The position numbers were made by a program, and so were the translations under genes. From Hoyosella altamirensis (GTDB taxonomy: Bacteria; Actinomycetota; Actinomycetes; Mycobacteriales; Mycobacteriaceae), in the NCBI RefSeq assembly GCF_014191505.1, contig NZ_JACHWS010000003.1, positions 558,001 through 622,000 of the forward strand: a DNA stretch of 64,000 nucleotides, in the 5' to 3' direction. This document shows positions 5,627 to 53,869 of the stretch, piece by piece. Below the pieces are notes generated by a model. That model had not been told where the DNA came from. It saw nothing but the letters and a program-made list of their open reading frames with translations, and made no database searches. Numbering within the stretch: position 1 is the stretch's first letter; every line of letters begins with the position of its first letter.

Positions 5627-8600
5627 TCACTGGTTGCTGCCGAAGACCCGTTCCACTACCCCACGCGCCCGGCGGGTGGTGCGACGGTAATGTTCGATGA
5701 AGCCACCTGGATCGCCGTCCCATCCAGCGATGTAGGCCACAGTTGTGAGCACCGGACCGGTACCGGGCAGCTGATCTGATGGTTTACCCCGGGCGAGCAC
5801 CAGCGCATTACGTGCCTTTGTTGCAGTGACCCAGGCGTCACGCAGTAGCGCGGTATCGCTTTCCGACAGCACTCCCTCCGCAGCGATCGCATCCAGGGAT
5901 TTCAGTGTGGAGGTATTCCGCATGCTCGTCACTTCATGTGCATAGCGCAATTGGAGCAGCTGCACGGTCCATTCCACGTCGGAGAGACCACCCCTGCCCA
6001 GCTTCGTGTGAGTCGCGGGATCGGCGCCGCGGGGCAGCCGTTCCGAATCGACGCGCGCCTTGATTCGGCGAATCTCCCGCACGGATTTTTCGGACATCCC
6101 ACCCTGGGGATAGCGGGACTTGTCTGCCATGTGCAGGAAGTCGATCCCCAGCTCAGGGTCTCCCGCTACCTGATGTGCACGCAAGAGCGCTTGCACTTCC
6201 CACGGCTGCGCCCACTGTGCGTAATACGCATCGTATGCAGCGAGCGTCCGCACCATAGGCCCGCTGCGTCCTTCCGGACGGAGGTTGGTATCAACCTCGA
6301 GCGGGGGGTCAACGCTGGGCGCTCCGAGTTGTTTCCTGACCATTTCGGCGATCCCAGTGGACCACTTCACGGCGGTGGTTTCGTCGGCGCCGGATTCGGG
6401 AGTACATACGAAGAGGACATCCGCGTCAGACCCGTAGCCGAGTTCAGCACCACCCAAACGGCCCATTCCGATGACCGCAATTCGGGCGGGAGCTGGCTCG
6501 CCCCGATCTTCGACGCTGGACTGGATGGCGGCTTTGAGGGCCGATTCCAGCACTGCCACCCAGACCGAGGACAGCGCCTCACACACCTGCGGGACATCGA
6601 GCATGCCGAGGACGTCAGCCGACGCGACACGTGCAAGTTCCGCGCGCCGCAGCGAGCGCGCCGCGGCAATCGAACGTTCCGGAGTTGCGTACCGCGCGGA
6701 CGACGCGAGGAGGCCCTTCGCCACGTCTTCGGGACAGGGCTCGACGAGCCGGGGGCCAGTGGCACCGTCGGCGAACAAACGCAGCACGTCGGGGGCACGA
6801 ATGAGCAAGTCGGGAATGTACGCGGACGAACCGAGTATCTTCATCAGCCGGCGAGCTGCGGCGCCCTCATCGCGAAGGGTGCGCAGGAACCATTCTTTGT
6901 CAGTCAGTTCGTCGGACATCCGCCGATACGCGAGCAGCCCCGCGTCTGGGTTCGGTGTCTCGCTGAGCCAGTCGAGCAATGTTGGAAGCAGCAGTGCCTG
7001 GATTCTGTCGCGCCTCGACAGTCCGCCCGAGAGGGCACGGAGATGGCTGAGCGCGTTACGCGGCGACGTGTATCCGAGCGCGGAAAGCTGCCTGATTGCC
7101 GCGTCCTCGGTGAGACGTATCGCCTCTGTTTCAAGCCGCGAGACAGACTCGAGAAGCGGCCGGTAGAAAAGCTTCGTGTGGATGCGGCGTACCCGGGCGA
7201 TGTTGCGCTTGATCTCCGCGATAAGCACGCCCTTCGCGTCAGTTGTGCCGTCCGGGCGCACGTGTGCCGCGCGCGCGAGCCAGCGCAGCGCCTCATCGTC
7301 ATCGAGCGAGGGCAACGTGTGCGTGCGCTGCATCCGCTGAATCTGGAGTCGATGTTCAAGCAAGCGAAGAAACTCATACGATGCCGTGAGATTCGCGGCG
7401 TCCTCGCGGCCAACGTAACCCCCAGCAGCCAGCGCGGTGAGTGCCTCAACCGTCGAGAGCACATGGAGCGAATCATCAGCCCGGCCATGCACCATTTGCA
7501 GAAGCTGCACAGCGAACTCGACATCGCGGAGGCCGCCAGCTCCGAGCTTGAGTTCGCGATCACGGATGTCAGCCGGGATCAGCGACTCCACGCGGCGTCG
7601 CATCTTGCGCACACCTTCGACGAAGTCGTCGCGTTCCGAAGTGACCCACACCATTGGGTTGAGCGCATCGATGTACTGCTGACCGAGCGCCATGTCACCA
7701 GACATCGGCCGGGCCTTCAGCAGTGCCTGGAACTCCCAGGTATGCGCCCAGCGCTTGTAGTAGGCGATGTGCGACTCAAGGGTGCGAACAAGGGCACCTG
7801 CCTTCCCTTCAGGACGCAGTGCGGCGTCAACTTCGAAGAACGCAGCCGAGCCGATGCGCATCGTTTCGCTTGCGAGGCGGGTGGCGGCACCATCCGCCGG
7901 CTCGGCAACAAATATGACGTCGACATCGCTGACGTAATTGAGTTCACGCGCGCCGCATTTCCCCATCGCAATAATTGCGAGCCGAACCGGGCATGGTCCT
8001 GCTGGGAACACTGTTGCGACGGCTACGGACAACGCCCCCGTGAGCGCCGCGTCGGCGAGTGCGCTGAGATGGCGGACGACTGCGGTGTACGGCAAGACAG
8101 GTTCGTCCTGCACCGTGGCGGCGAGGTCGACAGCGGCGAGGATCATCAACTGGTCGCGGTACTCGTTCCGCAACGCGATGATCGCCTTGGGACCGTCAAT
8201 CCCAGCCTTGAAAATCTTCGACTGGCCCTCAGGGATTTCTTCAACCGTCGCTGGCACGGCGTCGACCGCAGCGAGCATGCGGGTCGTAAGTTCATCGTCG
8301 GTGGGCAGGGGAATCGACTTCCCCCGGAGGTGGCGCCAGAGTTCAGGCCGCGCGATCAGATGATCACCAAGCGCGGTCGACGCGCCCAACAGCCCGAACA
8401 CACGCGCGCGCAAGCCGGTGTCGTCGCGCACCTCGCGGTCGAACTCCTGCCACTCGGCCCCAAGTGCGTCCTTCAAGCGGCCCAGCGCGAGTAACGCGAG
8501 GTCTGGGTCCGGTGCGCGCGAAAGCGCCCACAGCAAGTCCACGTCTTCTTGGCTGCCCCACCCCAGCAGACTGAGGCGGTTCGCCGCGCTGGAATCGACC

Positions 8601-8656
8601 ATCCCAAGCCTGGCAGGGCCCGGGATGAGAGAACGGCCAAGCGGTGGTCGCACCAT
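5627..8656 (-). CDS. glnE: Bifunctional glutamine synthetase adenylyltransferase/deadenylase GlnE
   Basis: Attaches or removes AMP on glutamine synthetase according to nitrogen status; 1009 residues. The protein is a tandem of two nucleotidyltransferase units. The N-terminal (deadenylylase) unit has [10 protein letters not shown] at 241-250; the C-terminal (adenylyltransferase) unit has [11 protein letters not shown] around 740-750 with metal-binding Asp744 and Asp746. Each unit is followed by the RPEGKAG/RPEGRSG and [22 protein letters not shown] signatures and a helical bundle. Its target Tyr406 is present in GlnA1. The gene follows glnA2 by 15 bp on the same strand, so the two are probably co-transcribed, as Rv2222c-Rv2221c. 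Confidence 0.97.
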
Positions 8657-8671
8657 GACTGCATTAACCCT

Positions 8672-10012
8672 TTACAGAGAAAGGTAGGTCTTCAACTCGT
8701 ATGGTGTGACCTGGGTGCGGTACTGCTCCCATTCCGCGCGCTTATTGCGGAGGAAGTAGTCGAATACGTGCTCACCGAGTGCCTCAGCGACAAGTTCCGA
8801 CTTCTCCATCTCGCGGAGAGCATGATCGAGGTTCCCTGGGAGTTCACGGTATCCCATCGCACGGCGTTCCGCCCGCGTCAGTGACCACACGTCGTCCTCC
8901 GCCTCAGCGGGCAGTTCGTAGCCATGCTCGACGCCACGCAAGCCCGCCGCGAGGAGCACCGCGAACGTCAAGTACGGGTTACAGGCTGAGTCGGGGCTGC
9001 GCACCTCAATACGCCGGGACCCCGCCTTGTTGGGCGTGTACATCGGGACACGGACGAGCGCGGACCGGTTCGCTCGGCCCCACGACCCCGCGGTCGGCGC
9101 TTCACCGCCGTGTATCAACCGCTTGTACGAGTTGACCCACTGGTTCGTGACGGCGCTGATCTCGTTCGCGTGGTGCAGAATTCCGGCGATGAACTGCTTC
9201 GCGGTATCCGAAAGTTCCATCGGGTCGTCCGGGTTGAAGAACGCGTTGCTCTCCCCCTCGAAAAGACTCATGTGGGTGTGCATGGCCGAGCCAGCATGCT
9301 GACTGAATGGCTTCGGCATGAAGGAGGCGTGCACTCCCTCGAGCAGAGCGACTTCCTTCACGACGTAACGGAAGGTCATGACGTTGTCGGCCATCGACAG
9401 GGCATCCGCGTAGCGCAGGTCGATTTCCTGCTGGCCCGGTGCTGTCTCATGGTGGCTGAACTCGACCGAGATCCCCATCGATTCGAGCGCCTCGATCGCA
9501 TGGCGGCGGAAGTTGGGGGCAGTGTCGTGAACTGCCTGATCGAAGTAACCGCCCTTGTCGGCTGGGATCGGCTCCGAACCGTCATCCGGCGAATTCTTCA
9601 GCAGAAAGAATTCGATCTCGGGATGGACGTAGCAGCTGAATCCCAAGTCGCCGGCTTTGTTGAGCTGGCGGCGCAGAACGTGCCGCGAGTCAGACCACGA
9701 GGGTGAACCGTCGGGCATCGCGATGTCGCAGAACATGCGAGCGGTATGCGGCTTCCCGTCTTTGTGCACCCACGGCAAAATCTGGAAGGTGGAGGGATCA
9801 GGCATCGCGACAGTGTCCGCTTCAGACACCCGCGAGAACCCTTCGATGGATGACCCATCGAAGCCAATACCCTCAGTGAAAGCGCCCTCAAGTTCCGCCG
9901 GTGCGATCGCCACCGACTTGAGGAAGCCGAGTACGTCGGTAAACCACAGCCGGACGAACCGGATGTCGCGCTCCTCGATCGTGCGGAGCACGAATTCCTT
10001 CTGGCGATCCAT
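8672..10012 (-). CDS. glnA2: Glutamine synthetase-like protein GlnA2
   Basis: Second type-I glutamine synthetase family member, 446 residues (Rv2222c position). It has FDGSSIEGFSRV, the HPEIEFFL glutamate site, and KPFSQHAGSAMHTHMSL of the ATP/glutamate site. The short form and the DDVWSLTRAERRAMGY loop differ from GlnA1: the position of the adenylylated tyrosine is Trp376, so GlnE should not regulate it. In mycobacteria this paralog is dispensable and contributes little to ammonia assimilation; some actinobacterial paralogs act as gamma-glutamylpolyamine synthetases. Its true substrate here is open. Confidence 0.93.
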   Translation of the reverse strand: MDRQKEFVLRTIEERDIRFVRLWFTDVLGFLKSVAIAPAELEGAFTEGIGFDGSSIEGFSRVSEADTVAMPDPSTFQILPWVHKDGKPHTARMFCDIAMPDGSPSWSDSRHVLRRQLNKAGDLGFSCYVHPEIEFFLLKNSPDDGSEPIPADKGGYFDQAVHDTAPNFRRHAIEALESMGISVEFSHHETAPGQQEIDLRYADALSMADNVMTFRYVVKEVALLEGVHASFMPKPFSQHAGSAMHTHMSLFEGESNAFFNPDDPMELSDTAKQFIAGILHHANEISAVTNQWVNSYKRLIHGGEAPTAGSWGRANRSALVRVPMYTPNKAGSRRIEVRSPDSACNPYLTFAVLLAAGLRGVEHGYELPAEAEDDVWSLTRAERRAMGYRELPGNLDHALREMEKSELVAEALGEHVFDYFLRNKRAEWEQYRTQVTPYELKTYLSL

Positions 10013-10114
10013 ACGGGCGAGGTTATCACCTAAGGTGGTCCGCCAACCGGGTTCGGCACGGGATGGCGGTGTCTAGCAACGACTCAGATGTCAGCCTGCA
10101 TTAACACCGCCGTC

Positions 10115-11767
10115 TCAGCACAGCGTGCCCTCCCCCGGGAGTTCCCCTTCAATCAGATATCTGGCCGCGTAATCGTCTACACACTGGATGCCCTGAAAAA
10201 CCGCAGTATGCGTATTGCCGCGAAAAGTCAGCAGCGCAGCGCCCAGCTGATCAGCGAGTTCAACGCCCGCTTCGTAGGGTGTTGCTGGGTCACCCGTGGT
10301 GGATACGACGAGTAGCGGGGGTAACTCCTCAGCGATATCGAGTGTTCCCGGTTCACTCGTATGGGGCACGGGCCAGAATGCGCACGTCGACAGAGGCGCG
10401 TTCCCGGTTCCACGGCCATCATCGAGGAAGGGGGCAGCCTCGCGGTATCTGCGGTCAACCTCGCCAGCAGTATCGCGGTCAAGTTCGGGCGGGCTGTCAA
10501 CGCAGCGGATAGCGTCAAACGCATCATTGCTGTTGTCGTAAAGCCCGTCGTCGCCGCGACCCTCGTAGATGTCTGCCAGCAGCAGCAGGGCGTCGCCACG
10601 GCCGTCGGCAAGCTCGGCAAGCCCCGCGCGCAGCGAGGGCCAGAACTGCTCCACGTAGAGGGCCTGCACAACTCCCGTGAGCGCATCCTCGTAACTCAAA
10701 CCGCGCGGATCAGTCGTTTGCGCTGGCCGCTCGATGAGTGGGTCCACCAGTTCGCGAAACTGCGGTATCGCCTCGCCTGGATCGTCACCTAGCGCGCATT
10801 CGGGCTGCGCTGTGCAGTCTTCAGCGAATGCGTCGAAAGCGCGCTGGAAGCCCTCTCCCTGCCGAATCACCGATTCGCCCGCTTCCTCCGCAGGGTCTAC
10901 TGCTCCATCCAGGATCATTGCGCGGACGTTCCCAGGGAACGCCTCGGCGTATAACGCTCCGAGATAGGTGGCGTAGGAGTACCCGAGGAAGTTCAGTTTG
11001 TCGTCCCCGAGTACGGCCCGGACAATATCCAGGTCACGGGCACCTTCCCGGCTGCCGACACTCGCAAGCAGCGCCTCCCCTGTTCGTTCGGCGCACAACG
11101 CTGCATATCGTTCATTGTCAGCCTCGTGCGCGGCGATGCCCTCTGGGCTCATATCCACGCGAACCTGCGCGCGGTAGGCATCTTTCTCCTCGTCGGTACG
11201 GCATGCGATCGGCGGATACGACGCTCCGACCCCTCGCGGGTCAAGTCCAACGATGTCGAAGCGCTCGATCACATCCGTGCCGAATATGGAAGTCGTGATA
11301 TCGGCGACGGTTTGCACACCGCCAACCCCTGGGCCGCCTGGGTTTAGGACGAGAGAACCGATCTTCTGGCCTTCCGCAGCGCGTCGCGCGAGGGCCACAT
11401 AGGCAACGTTGCCATCCACGCTCTCCTGGCCCTCCGGGTCGTCTGTGACATCGAGGACGCCTGGAGCGCTGTAGTCGACGGGAACCGCGACGCGGGCACA
11501 CGAGAACTCGTACACAGTGAGATTCTCGCGAGCGAGGGGATCGACCGCGTAGTCGTCGCATGGCCCCCACTCGACGGCCTGCTGGTAATAGCTCGCAAGT
11601 TCCGGGGGAAACTCCGTGGGAGTGGCGGGCACGAATTCCGGCCCTTCTTCATCCCCAGGACCCGGTCCGGCGCACCCAGCGAGCGCGAGTGCTGCAATCA
11701 CGACGAGAGTGAATCCCCCGCGGCCGTACCGCCCTCCCACCGCACGCGGAACCCGTTGCGTGATCAT
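10115..11767 (-). CDS. Secreted alpha/beta-hydrolase lipoprotein, Hip1/CaeA family
   Basis: A 550-residue exported serine hydrolase of the S33/TAP family. The signal peptide ends in a lipobox LAGC with Cys32, so it is predicted to be lipid-anchored outside the membrane. Catalytic features: oxyanion motif NPGGPG (142-147), nucleophile Ser264 in GYSYAT, and candidate Asp493 and His520 in the C-terminal TAP-like region, which also carries Cys residues expected to form disulfides. M. tuberculosis has two tandem paralogs here (Rv2223c and the envelope protease Hip1, Rv2224c); this genome has one. Substrate is inferred to be an exported protein or peptide. Confidence 0.88.
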   Translation of the reverse strand: MITQRVPRAVGGRYGRGGFTLVVIAALALAGCAGPGPGDEEGPEFVPATPTEFPPELASYYQQAVEWGPCDDYAVDPLARENLTVYEFSCARVAVPVDYSAPGVLDVTDDPEGQESVDGNVAYVALARRAAEGQKIGSLVLNPGGPGVGGVQTVADITTSIFGTDVIERFDIVGLDPRGVGASYPPIACRTDEEKDAYRAQVRVDMSPEGIAAHEADNERYAALCAERTGEALLASVGSREGARDLDIVRAVLGDDKLNFLGYSYATYLGALYAEAFPGNVRAMILDGAVDPAEEAGESVIRQGEGFQRAFDAFAEDCTAQPECALGDDPGEAIPQFRELVDPLIERPAQTTDPRGLSYEDALTGVVQALYVEQFWPSLRAGLAELADGRGDALLLLADIYEGRGDDGLYDNSNDAFDAIRCVDSPPELDRDTAGEVDRRYREAAPFLDDGRGTGNAPLSTCAFWPVPHTSEPGTLDIAEELPPLLVVSTTGDPATPYEAGVELADQLGAALLTFRGNTHTAVFQGIQCVDDYAARYLIEGELPGEGTLC

Positions 11768-44257: not shown

Positions 44258-44309
44258 TTGAGTGGGGCGGGCGGGGCTCGAACCCGCGACCAGCGGATTA
44301 TGAGTCCGC
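44258..44309. repeat. attL: 52-bp direct repeat (tRNA-Met 3' fragment)
   Basis: Identical to 53791-53842. It covers the acceptor 3' strand, T arm, variable loop and most of the anticodon arm of tRNA-Met. The sequence beyond 44309 departs from tRNA, so this copy is not functional. It marks the left end of the element. Confidence 0.95.
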
Positions 44310-48187: not shown

Positions 48188-48323
48188 GGCGGGACCGTCC
48201 TTTCCTTCGGGGCCGCTTGGGCTGGGTGAAGCAGGCGAGGCACAGGACGCCGCGGCGGGAATGGATGACGACGACTCGTTGCGTGCGGCACTCGGTGCAT
48301 ACGGGCTGTTGGTATACGGTCAC
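48177..48323 (-). CDS. Zinc-ribbon microprotein (48 aa)
   Basis: GTG 48323 follows GAGGAG. The 48-residue product has two knuckles (C9-TE-C12 and C28-LA-C31) and a strongly basic tail (KRPRRKGRSRRAQ), typical of a nucleic-acid-binding zinc ribbon. Its start overlaps the stop of the 44-residue ORF as GTGA. Confidence 0.6.
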   Translation of the reverse strand: MTVYQQPVCTECRTQRVVVIHSRRGVLCLACFTQPKRPRRKGRSRRAQ

Positions 48324-48454
48324 TGGCTGCTCCTCGTCGAGCCGTTGCGAGCCACGAAGGCTTGCGCGTTAGCGAAGGAAGCGAAATATGCGAAAGAAGT
48401 CGCTCCGGTGGGAATGGGCAAGGCCGCTGATTCGGGCATGTGCTTCGCTGTCAC
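48320..48454 (-). CDS. 44-residue ORF carrying a peptide shared with the DUF3987 protein
   Basis: GTG 48454 overlaps the previous stop (GTGA) and its own stop overlaps the next start (GTGA), so it fits the operon at both ends. The core PTGATSFAYFASFAN is identical to the C-terminal region of the DUF3987 protein because a 45-bp DNA segment is repeated (48368-48412 and 49092-49136, one mismatch). It may be a true peptide, or a frame kept open by a repeated DNA site. Confidence 0.5.
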   Translation of the reverse strand: MTAKHMPESAALPIPTGATSFAYFASFANAQAFVARNGSTRSSQ

Positions 48455-48472
48455 TGAGAGGCTTCGCTGTCA
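48371..48472. repeat. Iteron-like cluster A
   Basis: AGCGAA at 48371 and 48380 and TGCGAA at 48389 (exact 9-bp period), then about 50 bp later the inverse TTCGCT at 48444 and 48463, each within the 12-bp repeat GCTTCGCTGTCA (48442-48453, 48461-48472). The two 12-mers fall in different reading frames, which favours a DNA-level function. The same architecture recurs at 49095-49178. Confidence 0.65.
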
Positions 48473-48855
48473 TGGAAGATGTGCACGTCCTGTCGCCAGT
48501 CGATCGCTTCGACGTTGCCCGTTGAGTCGGTATCAAGCGGCAGCACACTGCCGTCGCCCATGACGCCCCACCCGACTAGCGGGGAAGTAACGGGTTGTCC
48601 GCCTTCGGTACCGGCGGGCCACCGGATGTTCCATCCCGGGGCTGGGATCGCTGAGATGACGGTGAGTCCGGGGTGTTCACCGGACGTCTCGATGCCGAAG
48701 AATCCGTCAACGTCAGTCGCTGGTATGAGGTACTTAGCTCGGTCACTGAACACAAGAGGCTCGCCTTCGCTGCTCCATGCGATGACCTTCTTTACAAATC
48801 TGGGCTGTTTCTCACTTCGGAATATCGCGATCGAGTCGGTGGTGTCGGGGATCAT
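48451..48855 (-). CDS. Element protein of unknown function (134 aa)
   Basis: A 134-residue beta-rich protein (DSIAIFRSEKQPRFVKKVIA, then EPLVFSDRAKYLIPATDVDG and GWNIRWPAGTEGGQPVTSPL). I do not recognise it; it resembles small phage proteins of unknown role. ATG 48855 is preceded by AAGGAC 9 nt upstream. It lies between the two iteron-like clusters. Confidence 0.65.
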   Translation of the reverse strand: MIPDTTDSIAIFRSEKQPRFVKKVIAWSSEGEPLVFSDRAKYLIPATDVDGFFGIETSGEHPGLTVISAIPAPGWNIRWPAGTEGGQPVTSPLVGWGVMGDGSVLPLDTDSTGNVEAIDWRQDVHIFHDSEASQ

Positions 48856-48872
48856 GGACGCTGTCCTTATGG

Positions 48873-50432
48873 TCAGGCGAGGGACTGGTGGTTGAGTTTC
48901 TCGGCGATGCACTGCCCGCACTTCTTAGCGCGGGGTTTGCCGTGGCGGCATTGCTCGGGGTCGTTGTCGATGCACTTGCCGCATAACTCGCCGTTGGTGT
49001 GCCATGCCTCAAACGCGTCGGTGAGGTCCTTGCCGCACGTGGCGCAGCCGGATCGGCGGGCGGGGGCTGTCTCGTTAACAGGGGTCTGCGAGTTAGCGAA
49101 AGAAGCGAAATATGCGAAAGAAGTCGCTCCGGTGGGGTTCGGGGAGGGGTTTAGTTCGCTTTCTTCGCTTAATTCGCTGTCGCGCACGCCGCCGTTGGTG
49201 GCTCGGTACCACGCAGAAGGGCGGCCACGGCCAGTCGACAAACGGAACATTTCAACTGTTCCTGCCTCCACAAGATCGTTCAGCAGTTCGTCGAGCACGT
49301 CTGCCTTCAGGTGGCGTGAGAACAAAGCGGAAATGTCGCTCCGTGATAGCCCCTCATGACCGGCATCGGCTAAGGCCCGGTTGATGCGGTCCAGACGGGG
49401 ATCGACGGCCATACCAGCGAGCACGTACTTCGCTGACTCGATCGAGAACCGGACCAGCGCCGCCGCGGCGGTCAGGTGGGGTTCGAGTATCTGACTGCCG
49501 CCCTCTAACGCGGCGTACAGCGCGGCAATACGAAGGCAGTAAGGGGCCGCTCGTTCCGTGAACTCAATCCACGCGCCGTCACCTTCAACGTCGGCGATGC
49601 CGGTGAACTCGTCGTAGAGCTCTTCCCAGAGCCGACGCGTTGCTGGGTCACCGGTCGCGACGCTGATACCCCCGAGGTTGCGTGCCTCGCACACAGCCTC
49701 AGAGAGACTGCCGGCAAGGTCATTGATGCGGGCAGTGTCGGGCCACGGTGGGAAGGCGAGTTTCTTCGACCGTTCGATGTAGACCGGCAAGTACCGGTTG
49801 TAGGTTCCCCCGGCCATGTCGGAGTCAGCCAGCCTCAGACGGAACTCGCGGGGGGTGATATGCCCAATGATCCCGACGTGGCTTGTTGAGGCTTTGGATT
49901 TCTTCCGGTTGAGTGTGGATAGTCGGCCCCCGTCCCATGCCTGACGGAGTATCTGCGCGAGCGTCGATCCTTCCCGCTTGGCGCGGGCCATGACGGAGGC
50001 GAATTCCGGTTCGAGGACGTACAGCCGTTTGTCTTCCGTGCCGCCCGGATCGTTCTCGTCGAGGGTGTCGCGGATACGTTCTATGACTCCCTCCCCGGAT
50101 GAGAGCCCAGATTCGGTCAGCGCGGGCAGTTCGAGCGGGAACGCGGTCTCGACGTAGCGGGCAGCGACGTTGGTTGCGGAACCTTTGCGCCCTGATCCGG
50201 TGCGCCCAAACAGCAAAGGCCAGATCAGGAGGGGATGCCGCTCGTAGCCGATGCGCAGCCAGGTGCTGGGGCCGACTACCACACCGACCTGGCAGAGCAG
50301 TGACGTGTAGATGCCGATGGGGTCGGCTTCGGTAGCGGGTAATGCGGAGCGGGTGATTTCACCGAGGATGCCGTGGAGGATGCGTTCGTCGTACGCAGGG
50401 ACTTGCGGTCTCTCGCGTGGCGTGCTGGTCAC
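48873..50432 (-). CDS. DUF3987 family ATPase-like replication protein
   Basis: A 519-residue protein, the largest of the element. A Walker-A-like loop GRTGSGRKGS (76-85) and EPEFASVMARAKREGSTL, then WDGGRLSTLNRKKS and GHITPREFRLRL, match the DUF3987/primase-helicase-like proteins that drive replication of mobile elements. A winged-helix-like segment (LSRSDISALFSRHLKADVL) precedes a tail with SELSEESEL and FAYFASFAN repeats and a C-terminal zinc ribbon (CATC ... CGKC ... CGQC). GTG 50432 is chosen because AAGGAGG lies 5 nt upstream. The coding end contains iteron-like cluster B, so it may bind its own gene. Confidence 0.8.
   Translation of the reverse strand: MTSTPRERPQVPAYDERILHGILGEITRSALPATEADPIGIYTSLLCQVGVVVGPSTWLRIGYERHPLLIWPLLFGRTGSGRKGSATNVAARYVETAFPLELPALTESGLSSGEGVIERIRDTLDENDPGGTEDKRLYVLEPEFASVMARAKREGSTLAQILRQAWDGGRLSTLNRKKSKASTSHVGIIGHITPREFRLRLADSDMAGGTYNRYLPVYIERSKKLAFPPWPDTARINDLAGSLSEAVCEARNLGGISVATGDPATRRLWEELYDEFTGIADVEGDGAWIEFTERAAPYCLRIAALYAALEGGSQILEPHLTAAAALVRFSIESAKYVLAGMAVDPRLDRINRALADAGHEGLSRSDISALFSRHLKADVLDELLNDLVEAGTVEMFRLSTGRGRPSAWYRATNGGVRDSELSEESELNPSPNPTGATSFAYFASFANSQTPVNETAPARRSGCATCGKDLTDAFEAWHTNGELCGKCIDNDPEQCRHGKPRAKKCGQCIAEKLNHQSLA
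49095..49178. repeat. Iteron-like cluster B
   Basis: AGCGAA at 49095 and 49104, TGCGAA at 49113, then the inverse TTCGCT at 49155, 49164 and 49173; both triplets have an exact 9-bp period and are separated by 36 bp. It lies inside the DUF3987 coding region, where the arms encode FAYFASFA and SELSEESE. Confidence 0.65.
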
Positions 50433-51293: not shown

Positions 51294-51617
51294 TCATCGG
51301 TTGGTGCGGCAGCCGCGCCAAAGCCGAGTCAGTCCGTGCGAGCGGGACGGGCGTCTAGACACGCTGTAGCCGACGCATTCGATAACGCCGTCACGGGCAG
51401 CGACCGCGAACAAAGCACCCCAACGGCCCGGGTGGTCTGGGTCGGGTGTGCCATGCTCGGTGAGGTCGAACGTCTCAAACGGCCTGCCCTGCGCGGCGAG
51501 GTGCTCAAGGGCGTGGCGGGCGGTATTCCACCACCAGGAATCGTGGTTCTTGATGGCGTCGGCCAGCTGACGTTGATCGCCGCCGGTCACCGTGTTTCGC
51601 CCTGTCGTTCGATCCAT
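51294..51617 (-). CDS. Actinophage-type small protein (107 aa)
   Basis: A 107-residue protein of a type common in actinobacterial prophages and elements: W-rich helix (NHDSWWWNTARHALEHLAAQ), then PFETFDLTEHGTPDPDHPGR, WGALFAVAARDGVIE and a basic 'SRRPSRSHGLTRLWRG' tail. Function unknown; often next to xis. It overlaps the xis end by 31 nt. Confidence 0.7.
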   Translation of the reverse strand: MDRTTGRNTVTGGDQRQLADAIKNHDSWWWNTARHALEHLAAQGRPFETFDLTEHGTPDPDHPGRWGALFAVAARDGVIECVGYSVSRRPSRSHGLTRLWRGCRTNR

Positions 51618-51772
51618 TCGGTGAGGGCATCGGAAGGTATGAACCGCCGTCGTCCAATCTTTATCGAGGAAAGTTCTCCCTCAGACATCAGGACATACAG
51701 ATGACTGCGGCTGATCCCGCCTAGCGCGGCGCAAGCTTCGGGCACTGCAAGCAAGTGCGTGTAGGTCTTCAT
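51587..51772 (-). CDS. xis: Excisionase (helix-turn-helix Xis)
   Basis: A 61-residue winged helix protein: VPEACAALGGISRSHLYVLM, then GELSSIKIGRRRFIPSDALTEWI, the standard HTH_17 excisionase pattern. It should direct the integrase toward excision. ATG 51772 has AAAAGGAG 6 nt upstream. It is the first gene of the leftward operon, divergent from the repressor, with GGTGCTG operator repeats in between. Confidence 0.88.
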   Translation of the reverse strand: MKTYTHLLAVPEACAALGGISRSHLYVLMSEGELSSIKIGRRRFIPSDALTEWIERQGETR

Positions 51773-51785
51773 TTCCACTCCTTTT

Positions 51786-51905
51786 GGTGCTGTCACAGCA
51801 CCTTGATTATCACGACTGTACCTAGATCGGTGCTGCACCAGCGACAGTAGCGCATGGTGCTGGATAGCCGCAACCAATCACGGACACTGCCCTGATATGG
51901 TGCTG
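51786..51905. promoter_or_regulatory. Operator array between xis and the XRE repressor
   Basis: GGTGCTG occurs four times in the same orientation (51786, 51829, 51856, 51899; spacings 43, 27 and 43 bp), each followed by N-A. The first is part of a palindrome GGTGCTG-TCA-CAGCACC (51786-51802), and the second of GGTGCTGCACC. The last copy ends 2 bp before the repressor ATG. This is the pattern expected for autoregulation and control of the leftward operon. Confidence 0.7.
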
Positions 51906-51907
51906 TA

Positions 51908-52576
51908 ATGCAACCACCAGAGCAGGTTTGGGCCGACTGGGAGAGAAACGCCCTAGAACAACTCGCGGAAGGGCTACGCCGAGCACGTAAACGCGCCGGT
52001 TTGTCACAGCGGGCCTTGGCAGACCACGCGTGCATCGATCGCGGAATTATCGCGAACATCGAGTCTGGCACCGGTCGAATTACGGAACTACCTAAACTCG
52101 CGGTCCTAGTCCGCCTCGCGTGGGCTCTAGAAACAAGTCCAGCGGAGTTGCTCTACCCTCCCAACCAGAGAGAAGTGGCGGTTTACCTCAACTACCGCGC
52201 CGCGCCGCTGATTGCTGCCGAATGGCTACACAAGTCGAAGAGCTTCCGACTAATGGCTGATGCGTGGCTCACTGAAACTCAACTAACCGATGGATTTGCG
52301 GACATCCACGACACTTTCAGGAAGATCAAGGCCGATTCGGCAGACTTCAGCCGAGTTGGCTTCACGACACGAATTCGACACCTTCAGGAGGACATTGACC
52401 ACCTAATCGACGTGAAGAACCAGTTGCCTGAAGAAGACGTTGCCGACGTCGGGGAACTTTCAGTAGAGCGCCTAAGAGAATTGCGGGATGGCCTGCGCAA
52501 CCTGCAACTCGAGTTCTTCGAGTTGGTTGCCGATGAGGGCACCCATCGCCCCGAGCGGAGGCATCGTCATGGCTAG
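51908..52576 (+). CDS. XRE-family repressor of the element
   Basis: A 222-residue protein with an N-terminal XRE helix-turn-helix (LRRARKRAGLSQRALADHAC, then IDRGIIANIESGTGRI; ~residues 22-70) and a helical C-terminal part (RLREL, HLQEDIDHLIDVKNQ) that may dimerise. Being divergent from xis with shared operator repeats, it is the likely master repressor that keeps the element integrated. ATG 51908 has no clear ribosome site and is close to the operator, so a leaderless or near-leaderless transcript is plausible. Its end overlaps the integrase start by 8 nt. Confidence 0.85.
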   Translation: MQPPEQVWADWERNALEQLAEGLRRARKRAGLSQRALADHACIDRGIIANIESGTGRITELPKLAVLVRLAWALETSPAELLYPPNQREVAVYLNYRAAPLIAAEWLHKSKSFRLMADAWLTETQLTDGFADIHDTFRKIKADSADFSRVGFTTRIRHLQEDIDHLIDVKNQLPEEDVADVGELSVERLRELRDGLRNLQLEFFELVADEGTHRPERRHRHG

Positions 52577-53756
52577 GCAGCAGTTGCCACCACAAATACG
52601 CAAGATCACGGTCACCGATCGACGCACTAGCAAGAAAGTACCTCGTTATCAGGTGACAGTTGATACGGGGACCAATGACGAGGGCAGACGGAAGCAGACA
52701 CGCAAGCGCTTCACGACAGAGAAGGACGCCCGAGATTACCTAGCTTCAACACAAGCTGCGGTTGCGGCGGGAACCTATGTGTCGCGCAGTAAGCGGACTG
52801 TGCGACAGGCCATTGATGAGTGGTTAGCGAGTAAGCACAATCTGAAGGCGTCGACGCTGCGCGGGCATCAGTCGAAGCTGTCAGCCGTCACCGACGAACT
52901 CGGCAACGTCGAGGTTCAAAGGCTGTCGAAGGCAAACCTTGACGACCTAGTGAGACGGCTTCGCGCTGGCGAGGTTGAAGGCCGCTCGGCCTGGTCTCCC
53001 CGATCCGTGAACTACATGCTGTCCATCCTGACGTCCGCTCTGGAGTCTGAGGTACAGCAGGGCAACGTAGCGCGCAACGTCGCCGCGCTAGTCGAGCGTG
53101 TCGACCAGTCGGGCCGCACCGAGATGAAGACGTTGACCGAAGGCCAGATGTTCCGCATTCTCGATCACGAGTGTGAAGATCGGCACCTGTGGGCGCTCGC
53201 GCTGTACGGGTTGCGGCGTGGTGAGATCGCGGGCCTCCGCTGGTCGAAGGTCGATTTGAAGGCCGGGGCAGTGACTATCGATGAGACAAAAGTTGTCGTT
53301 GAACGTGAAGTACTTGTCGGTACTCCAAAGTCGAAACGATCACGCCGGACACTGCCCATGCCTGCTGACGTCATAGAGGTTTTGAGGGCGGCACGGAAGC
53401 GGCAACTCGAAGATCGCATGATCGCAGGGTCGACGTACGGGAGCGGCGAATACGTTGCCAGCGACCAGCTTGGGCAGCCGTTGCACCCTGACGCGATCAC
53501 GTCCCGGTGGGAGAAACTGTTGAAGGTTCTCGGCATCCCTGCCGTGCGGCTGCATGACGCCAGGCACTCATGCGCGACGCTGATGCATCTTCGCGGTGTA
53601 CCGATCGCGGTCATTGCGGCGTGGCTCGGTCATGCGTCGGCTGCGTTCACGATGGCGACCTACGCGCATTCGCAAGATGACGCTCTGAAGGCCGCTGCAA
53701 GTAGTTTTGGTCGAGTTGTGACAACTCGTGACACTGAGACCGGTTCGGATGCCTGA
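52569..53756 (+). CDS. int: Tyrosine-type site-specific integrase
   Basis: A 395-residue phage-type integrase: an AP2-like arm-binding domain (~residues 10-75, PRYQVTVDTGTNDEGRR), a SAM-like core-binding domain (~75-175), and a catalytic domain with Arg216 (LYGLRRGEI), His329 and Arg332 (LHDARHS), His355 (WLGHAS) and the nucleophile Tyr365 (MATYAH). All catalytic residues are present, so it should be active. ATG 52569 overlaps the repressor gene, suggesting co-expression. The right att site is 34 bp downstream. Confidence 0.95.
   Translation: MARQQLPPQIRKITVTDRRTSKKVPRYQVTVDTGTNDEGRRKQTRKRFTTEKDARDYLASTQAAVAAGTYVSRSKRTVRQAIDEWLASKHNLKASTLRGHQSKLSAVTDELGNVEVQRLSKANLDDLVRRLRAGEVEGRSAWSPRSVNYMLSILTSALESEVQQGNVARNVAALVERVDQSGRTEMKTLTEGQMFRILDHECEDRHLWALALYGLRRGEIAGLRWSKVDLKAGAVTIDETKVVVEREVLVGTPKSKRSRRTLPMPADVIEVLRAARKRQLEDRMIAGSTYGSGEYVASDQLGQPLHPDAITSRWEKLLKVLGIPAVRLHDARHSCATLMHLRGVPIAVIAAWLGHASAAFTMATYAHSQDDALKAAASSFGRVVTTRDTETGSDA
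53714..53735. promoter_or_regulatory. Putative integrase arm-type site, right
   Basis: GAGTTGTGACA-A-CTCGTGACAC: two GTGACA repeats 10 bp apart, the counterpart of 44409-44431 with a 1-nt shorter spacer. It lies within the last codons of int. Confidence 0.55.
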
Positions 53757-53790: not shown

Positions 53791-53842
53791 TTGAGTGGGG
53801 CGGGCGGGGCTCGAACCCGCGACCAGCGGATTATGAGTCCGC
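53791..53842. repeat. attR: 52-bp direct repeat within tRNA-Met
   Basis: Identical to 44258-44309. It includes the tRNA 3' portion from the anticodon arm to the discriminator plus 5 bp beyond, so insertion preserved a complete tRNA. Confidence 0.95.
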
Positions 53843-53869
53843 GGCTCTAACCGACTGAGCTACCGCCCC
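53796..53869 (-). tRNA. tRNA-Met (anticodon CAT)
   Basis: A 74-nt cloverleaf: acceptor GGGGCGG/CCGCCCC, D arm TAGCTCAGTCGGTTAGAGC, anticodon stem GCGGA/TCCGC around CTCATAA (CAT), T arm GCGGGTTCGAGCCCCGC. An elongator tRNA-Met is most likely; tRNA-Ile with a lysidine-modified CAT anticodon cannot be excluded by eye. It is the integration target of the adjacent element. Confidence 0.93.

What the first reader, a model, noticed from the sequence alone, without database searches (positions are those of the whole stretch)
48371..49178. Two matching iteron-like clusters of AGCGAA/TTCGCT flank one gene
Cluster B has three AGCGAA-type units and three inverse TTCGCT units, each triplet with an exact 9-bp period. 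Cluster A, 700 bp away, has the same left triplet and two inverse units in a 12-bp repeat. The inverse units fall in different reading frames in A, and in B opposite strands of the same 6-mer encode FA and SE repeats, so DNA-level selection is likely. Position at the end of the DUF3987 replication gene suggests an origin or a partition/packaging site.
Basis: partly seen in the sequence, partly recalled or inferred. Interest (0 to 1): 0.75.

Follow-up and report, generated by a model that had tools for sequence, protein, structure and literature searches.

The report
Replication origin inside its initiator gene
The repeats look like the start site at which a small mobile element copies its DNA, written inside the gene for the protein that would start the copying; relatives suggest that one amino acid of that protein tracks which repeat it uses.

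Summary
The repeats are real and at the stated coordinates, in a 9.5-kb integrated element (52-bp att repeats, integrase, repressor, excisionase-like gene, DUF3987 gene). Cluster B lies inside the 3' part of the DUF3987 gene: three AGCGAA-type units, a 36-bp spacer, three inverse units. Relatives keep the design at the same place: 56 of 67 loci have three direct and three mirrored units, spaced 9,8 in 54 and 8,9 in 51 of the 56, against 6 of 264 control positions. Cores differ and use all three reading phases, so selection acts on DNA. Iteron sequence follows the Rep's C-terminal, winged-helix-like segment rather than its helicase part (partial r 0.46). Arg at the position of window Ser368 goes with CGCGG cores: 5 of 5 versus 0 of 29; in later loci 4 of 4 with Arg carry CGCGG/CGTGG, 0 of 15 without. 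B is best read as the element's replication origin, SaPI/PICI-like but with a DUF3987 initiator that reads through it. The nearest relative (L037) lacks the full array, and B lacks the palindrome and boxes of most relatives. Cluster A is a degenerate second copy, role open. No wet test; the structure prediction never returned.

The parts
49155..49178 (-). Cluster B, left arm in the sense of rep: three AGCGAA units, 9-bp period, coding SELSEESE in Rep
   Evidence: same place and order as in relatives
49119..49154 (.). 36-bp spacer between the arms of B, 23 of 36 G+C; no inverted iteron pair and no TGACC/GGTCA boxes
49095..49118 (+). Cluster B, right arm: three inverse units (AGCGAA, AGCGAA, TGCGAA on +), 9-bp period, coding FAYFASFA in Rep; among the most AT-rich stretches of the element
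48371..48394 (+). Cluster A, intact right arm; lies in the copy 48363-48423 of the 61-bp repeat whose other copy is 49087-49147
48442..48472 (-). Cluster A, left side: two units in a 12-bp repeat (48442-48453 and 48461-48472), 19 bp apart
48873..50432 (-). rep: DUF3987 protein, 519 aa from a proposed GTG start at 50432 (the open frame reaches 50531), stop included
   Evidence: the start is inferred
49200..49406 (-). winged-helix-like segment of Rep, residues 343-411; Ser368 is the position that is Arg in Reps with CGCGG iterons
   Evidence: the fold is inferred
48876..49046 (-). Cys-rich C-terminal tail of Rep (from CATC, residue 463), probably zinc ribbons; reads on beyond the origin
   Evidence: zinc binding is inferred
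48451..48855 (-). 134-aa ORF between B and A, no family found; its stop lies in the 12-bp repeat region of A
51587..51877 (-). HTH_17, excisionase-like gene
51908..52576 (+). HTH regulator, divergent from the rep side
52488..53756 (+). tyrosine integrase
44258..44309 (.). att repeat, left end of the element, 52 bp
53791..53842 (.). att repeat, right end, identical 52 bp, overlaps tRNA-Met 53795-53869

Best explanation
Cluster B is the replication origin of a small integrated mobile element, placed inside the gene of its own initiator. The DUF3987 Rep, probably a self-loading ring helicase distantly like MCM, binds the iterons with a winged-helix-like segment near its C-terminus. Each triplet seats one Rep assembly; the triplets face each other, so two helicases load in opposite orientation and open the DNA at or between the arms. 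Cluster A is a degenerate duplicate 724 bp away that probably still binds Rep through its intact right arm and serves copy control, or is a relic. Shown from sequence: the arrays, their mirrored spacing in relatives, their independence of the reading frame, and their co-variation with the C-terminal segment. Inferred: binding, ring formation, loading, origin activity and the role of A.
For: Facing triplets near the rep 3' end in 56 of 67 loci, with 9,8 and 8,9 spacing in 54 and 51 of 56, against 6 of 264 control positions. A core-free scan found a facing array near the rep end in 34 of 48 loci, with 21 hits in the other 459 kb and 1 in 497 kb of Markov sequence. All three reading phases are used (16, 12, 9 of 37 loci). 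Iteron distance follows the C-terminal segment, not the helicase part. The CGCG core arose about five times on the helicase tree, and Arg at the Ser368 column goes with it, also in later loci. Three of the four genome matches of the triplet pattern are these arms. Profile matches to MCM and to winged-helix proteins, weak. SaPI Reps and SCCmec Cch2 bind iterons downstream of their genes with C-terminal domains (PMC7581432, passages).
Against: The nearest relative, L037 (51-53% identity), has only two inverse units of a right arm left. Eleven of 67 loci score under the threshold; the 7 outgroup loci (5 of them phage or plasmid DUF3987 genes) have no array. The window differs from most relatives: spacing 9,9, no inverted iteron pair, no TGACC/GGTCA boxes, G+C-rich spacer. 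The search range for the window and for L048 was set by hand. Permutation p values ignore relatedness; independent pairs agree in only 4 of 4 (p 0.125). No binding, replication or structure result.
Confidence: 0.85

Rival explanations
1. The arrays are binding sites of Rep or of another protein that control expression or copy number (autoregulation, handcuffing), and replication starts elsewhere. Cluster A alone may be of this kind.
For: Iterons can serve control as well as initiation (general knowledge). A has an intact right arm but a broken left side, and B lacks the palindrome and boxes of most relatives.
Against: The conserved place is the 3' end of rep, far from its promoter, and the facing triplets are kept in 56 of 67 loci. 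The SaPI/PICI precedent at this place is an origin (PMC6092414, passages).
Confidence: 0.09
2. The repeats are a by-product of a repetitive linker peptide or of codon bias, without a DNA role.
For: The window linker is repetitive, and synonymous redraws already give 3.4 units on average where 6 are seen.
Against: Six or more units come up in about 1% of redraws. In relatives the arrays are in all three phases, span the stop codon in 36 of 55 loci and lie beyond it in 7 of 55.
Confidence: 0.02
3. A centromere-like partition site or a phage packaging site.
For: Clusters of short repeats can be partition sites (general knowledge); the element may be a phage satellite by its gene order.
Against: No partition or packaging gene was recognised in the element ORFs scanned; the arrays co-vary with the helicase C-terminus.
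Confidence: 0.02
4. A decayed origin: the element once replicated from B, but the present copy is no longer active.
For: The nearest relative has lost most of its array; the window lacks the palindrome and boxes.
Against: Rep is an open frame with the P-loop residues of the family, att repeats are identical, and the six units of B are intact at the core. L065 is similarly compact.
Confidence: 0.1

Closest known systems
SaPI/PICI rep-ori module (phage-inducible chromosomal islands)
   Same: Origin at the 3' end of the initiator helicase gene, two sets of iterons, C-terminal iteron-binding domain, and the gene order int-repressor / xis-rep-ori (PMC6092414 and PMC7581432, passages).
   Different: DUF3987 initiator instead of the SaPI Reps; no AT-rich spacer; origin translated inside rep; no capsid or packaging gene recognised; phage induction not tested.
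SCCmec Cch2 and its putative origin
   Same: Helicase with a C-terminal domain that binds short repeats downstream of its gene; three iterons in that site (PMC7581432, passages).
   Different: Different helicase family; here two facing triplets.
DUF3987 domains predicted to be helicases in primase fusions (PrimQH, All3500)
   Same: DUF3987 predicted to be a helicase of mobile elements and, in PrimQH proteins, placed before a WH domain (PMC5862659, passages).
   Different: No primase in the window Rep; those passages name no origin or binding site.
PICMI satellites of Vibrionaceae
   Same: Small islands defined by integrase, AlpA/HTH_17 and a DUF3987 primase (PMC10803314, passages).
   Different: Defined with fis as insertion site, phage-induced; no iteron origin in the passages seen; other hosts.
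Actinomycete integrative and conjugative elements (RepAM, RepSA, Prim-Pol)
   Same: Integrated actinobacterial elements with own replication; relative L011 has Prim-Pol and WhiB genes next to rep (PMC3218068, passages).
   Different: RepAM is DUF3631 there, not DUF3987; no transfer gene recognised in the window element.

Membership tests
SaPI/PICI-type origin | Origin directly 3' of the initiator gene | tested here: met
   At the rep 3' end in relatives; in the window within the 3' part of rep, about 75 codons before its stop
SaPI/PICI-type origin | Two sets of iterons | tested here: met
   Three and three facing units in B
SaPI/PICI-type origin | AT-rich region between the iteron sets | tested here: not met
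   Window spacer 23 of 36 G+C; the arms themselves are AT-rich
SaPI/PICI-type origin | C-terminal domain of the helicase binds the iterons | tested here: inconclusive
   Co-variation only; no binding assay
SaPI/PICI-type origin | rep plus ori drives autonomous replication | not testable with these tools
   needs an experiment
PICI element | int and repressor divergent from xis-rep-ori, specific att site | tested here: met
PICI element | Phage interference or packaging genes | tested here: not met
   None recognised among the element ORFs scanned; several ORFs have no family, so unknown ones may exist
PICI element | Induction and transfer by a helper phage | not testable with these tools
   needs an experiment
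Actinomycete integrative and conjugative element | RepSA, RepAM (DUF3631) or Prim-Pol replication gene | tested here: not met
   Window Rep matches DUF3987; none of the named families among the ORFs scanned
Actinomycete integrative and conjugative element | FtsK/SpoIIIE-type transfer protein | tested here: not met
   None among the element ORFs scanned

The most novel reading that the evidence does not exclude
DUF3987 helicases of Actinomycetota form an unrecognised class of iteron-reading initiators in which the DNA-reading segment and the origin lie side by side in the DNA and change together as one cassette, with a legible protein-DNA code (Arg at one position for CGCGG, mostly Thr or Ser for CGAA). 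Some relatives carry further complete origin-like modules with other cores and no second full rep beside them (L029, L050, L027), so elements may borrow or titrate each other's initiators; the window's second cluster would be a same-core case. In the window the whole origin is translated as part of its initiator.
Probability: 0.45. Interest if true: 0.8.

Novelty: new variant of a known kind. Interest (0 to 1): 0.68.

Why it matters
DUF3987 is a domain of unknown function in phages, satellites and integrated elements, so far only predicted to be a helicase (PMC5862659, passages). Here it gains a likely job as origin-binding initiator, a binding site, and a one-residue correlate of specificity that a gel shift can test directly. 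If it holds, the origins of many actinobacterial elements can be read off the 3' end of a gene, and one could predict which elements compete for the same initiator.

Tried and rejected
A count of the commonest 6-mer in 260-bp windows was too noisy in G+C-rich DNA: in many loci, the window among them, distant windows scored as high; I replaced it by the array scan. A 17-base piece of the right arm gave 4 viral contigs with no array and no convincing Rep match: taken as chance. The A-B region had no blastn match in phages. The ORF between the clusters has no Pfam or NCBIfam match, no match in phages, and none in 150 other genomes of the family. Runs of GCGAA upstream of rep in L058 looked like scattered coding matches when read. 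NCBIfam gave nothing for 10 element proteins. I had noted one control hit (L027) as the origin of a second rep copy; one search shows rep fragments only downstream, so that was wrong: it is an array upstream of rep with another core.

Literature: 10 held papers name DUF3987 (listing; passages of two of them). These and the listings showed me no iteron origin for this family; most subscription journals are not held. Older work on RepAM was not available and nothing recalled about it is used.

The structure job was accepted and polled to without result. The winged-helix assignment thus rests on weak profile matches and on the co-variation.

Full report
Observation. Both clusters are present as described. 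B (49095-49178) has two facing triplets with a 9-bp period. A (48371-48472) has the same right-hand triplet, within a 61-bp repeat of 89% identity, and two inverse units 19 bp apart in a 12-bp repeat. In the 4.76-Mb genome the pattern GCGAA-N4-GCGAA-N4-GCGAA has 4 matches; three are arms of A and B, and the reversed control has none.

Setting. The clusters lie in a 9.5-kb element bounded by identical 52-bp repeats, the right one overlapping tRNA-Met. Integrase and an HTH regulator run towards the right end; an HTH_17 excisionase-like gene, small genes, the DUF3987 gene, a WhiB-like gene and unknown genes run the other way. This is the order described for phage-inducible islands of Gram-positive hosts (PMC6092414, passages), but no packaging or transfer gene was recognised in the ORFs scanned.

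B is inside rep. In the sense of rep the order is: DUF3987 match, winged-helix-like segment (about residues 343-411), left arm, 36-bp spacer, right arm, Cys-rich tail. Both arms are translated (SELSEESE and FAYFASFA). In the alignment as shown (every second row), no relative has a matching Cys-rich tail.

Relatives. In the host's own family they are rare: 2 of 301 genomes, the window's own included; in the family of G628 they are common, 53 of 390. A scan for any 5-mer with at least five units in two facing runs found one near the rep end in 34 of 48 loci, window included; in one of these, L016, the core is not that of its direct units. The rest of the loci (about 459 kb) gave 21 hits, and 497 kb of second-order Markov sequence gave 1. 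The seven outgroup loci (L032, L034, L053-L057) gave none near rep.

Architecture. A finer search, allowing spacings of 8, 9 or 10, found three direct and three mirrored units in 56 of 67 loci (37 of 41, 19 of 26; totals). The search range was set by hand for the window and for L048. Left spacing is 9,8 in 54 of 56 and right spacing 8,9 in 51 of 56; the window has 9,9 on both sides. The same search at 264 other positions in 66 loci gave 6 hits, of which two are one secondary array in L050 and one is a complete array upstream of rep in L027. Between the arms 47 of 56 loci have an inverted pair of iterons, and 47 have both a TGACC-like and a GGTCA-like box under a loose pattern. The window has neither. 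L065, from another family, is similarly compact.

DNA, not peptide. The arrays occupy all three phases of the rep frame: 16, 12 and 9 of 37 loci; two of these 37 lie wholly after the stop, where phase has no coding meaning. The left arm spans the stop codon in 36, precedes it in 12 and follows it in 7 of 55 loci, the window not counted. In the window, six or more units arise in about 1% of synonymous redraws, whose mean is 3.4; the right arm is among the lowest-GC3 stretches of rep, though a stretch of the preceding domain is as low.

Reader segment. Over 31 Reps with arrays, iteron distance correlates with distance in the C-terminal segment when helicase distance is held fixed (r 0.458, p 0.0005), and not the other way round (r -0.215, p 0.99). 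In sliding 50-residue windows the peak is at residues 351-400, upstream of the arrays. These p values ignore relatedness. On a tree of the helicase part the CGCG-core class needs five changes for five members, at least four forced by well supported branches; some branches are long. Of 382 columns scored, that of window Ser368 ranks first: Arg in 5 of 5 CGCG Reps; Thr 24, Ser 3, Asn 1, Ala 1 in the 29 others. Independent pairs agree in 4 of 4, too few for significance (p 0.125). Three of the 29 (L005, L016, L042) have no array above the threshold and were counted as non-CGCG.

Later loci. Of 56 further loci 30 were the same as earlier ones, leaving 26; 19 have arrays above the threshold. The four with Arg carry CGCGG (L100, L108, L119) or CGTGG (L102); none of the 15 without Arg does. 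Those with CGGA cores have Ala, Gly, Tyr or Thr. L063 has Arg with a different array that scores 69, just under the threshold of 70. These loci partly share genera with the first set, so they are not fully independent.

Mechanism. The best solved matches of the Rep profile are MCM helicases (Mcm7 E 0.004; the others 0.1 or weaker) and, weaker, winged-helix proteins; Pfam adds weak AAA-lid and winged-helix matches in a few members. [quoted passage not shown] By analogy two facing triplets would seat two Rep rings. Loading, melting and polarity are inferred.

Against. The nearest relative, L037 in L058, keeps only two inverse units. Eleven of 67 loci are under the threshold. The window departs from the common pattern in spacing, palindrome and boxes. 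A decayed origin cannot be excluded.

Cluster A. It keeps a full right arm and two left units with altered spacing. In one search, which listed clusters of one core in each locus, I saw no clear same-core second pair of arms some 600-800 bp downstream; L005, L021 and L027 have extended or extra inverted units close to the main array. Copy control, weak second origin and relic remain open. A also holds a 39-codon frame that repeats the peptide FAYFASFAN, which may just follow from the duplication.

Novelty. Iteron origins next to helicase initiators are known. A DUF3987 initiator with mirrored triplets, a residue-level correlate of specificity, and an origin translated within its initiator did not appear in the paper searches made.

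Noticed in passing
L029, about +1396 after the rep stop: A complete second origin-like module (ACGGA core, 9,8 and 8,9 spacing, TGACC/GGTCA boxes) with a core other than that of the resident array; no second DUF3987 gene was found in the 13-kb locus.
   Followed up: partly
L050 and L044, about +565 after the rep stop; L029, about +540: Further arrays with boxes and other cores (GGGACGG type in L050 and L044, AAGTGGAT-like in L029), read by eye.
   Followed up: partly
L027, about -1786 to -1657 from the rep stop, and 7502-10431: An ACGAAC array with boxes upstream of rep, whose own array has a TTCGAA-like core; downstream lie several DUF3987 fragments.
   Followed up: partly
L016, +70 to +300 after the rep stop: Direct units with an ACGAAC core are followed by arrays of another core (CGGGTTTG), as if two origins had been spliced.
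   Followed up: no
the 56 loci: Distances between the arms bunch near 84 and 105 bp, about 8 and 10 helical turns. Relatedness was not taken into account.
   Followed up: no
window 48314-48430, minus strand: A 39-codon frame in cluster A repeats the peptide FAYFASFAN of Rep.
   Followed up: no
L058 (G628), downstream of the rep stop at 10140: The nearest Rep relative stands beside a frame that by eye resembles a mobilisation relaxase; not tested against families.
   Followed up: no
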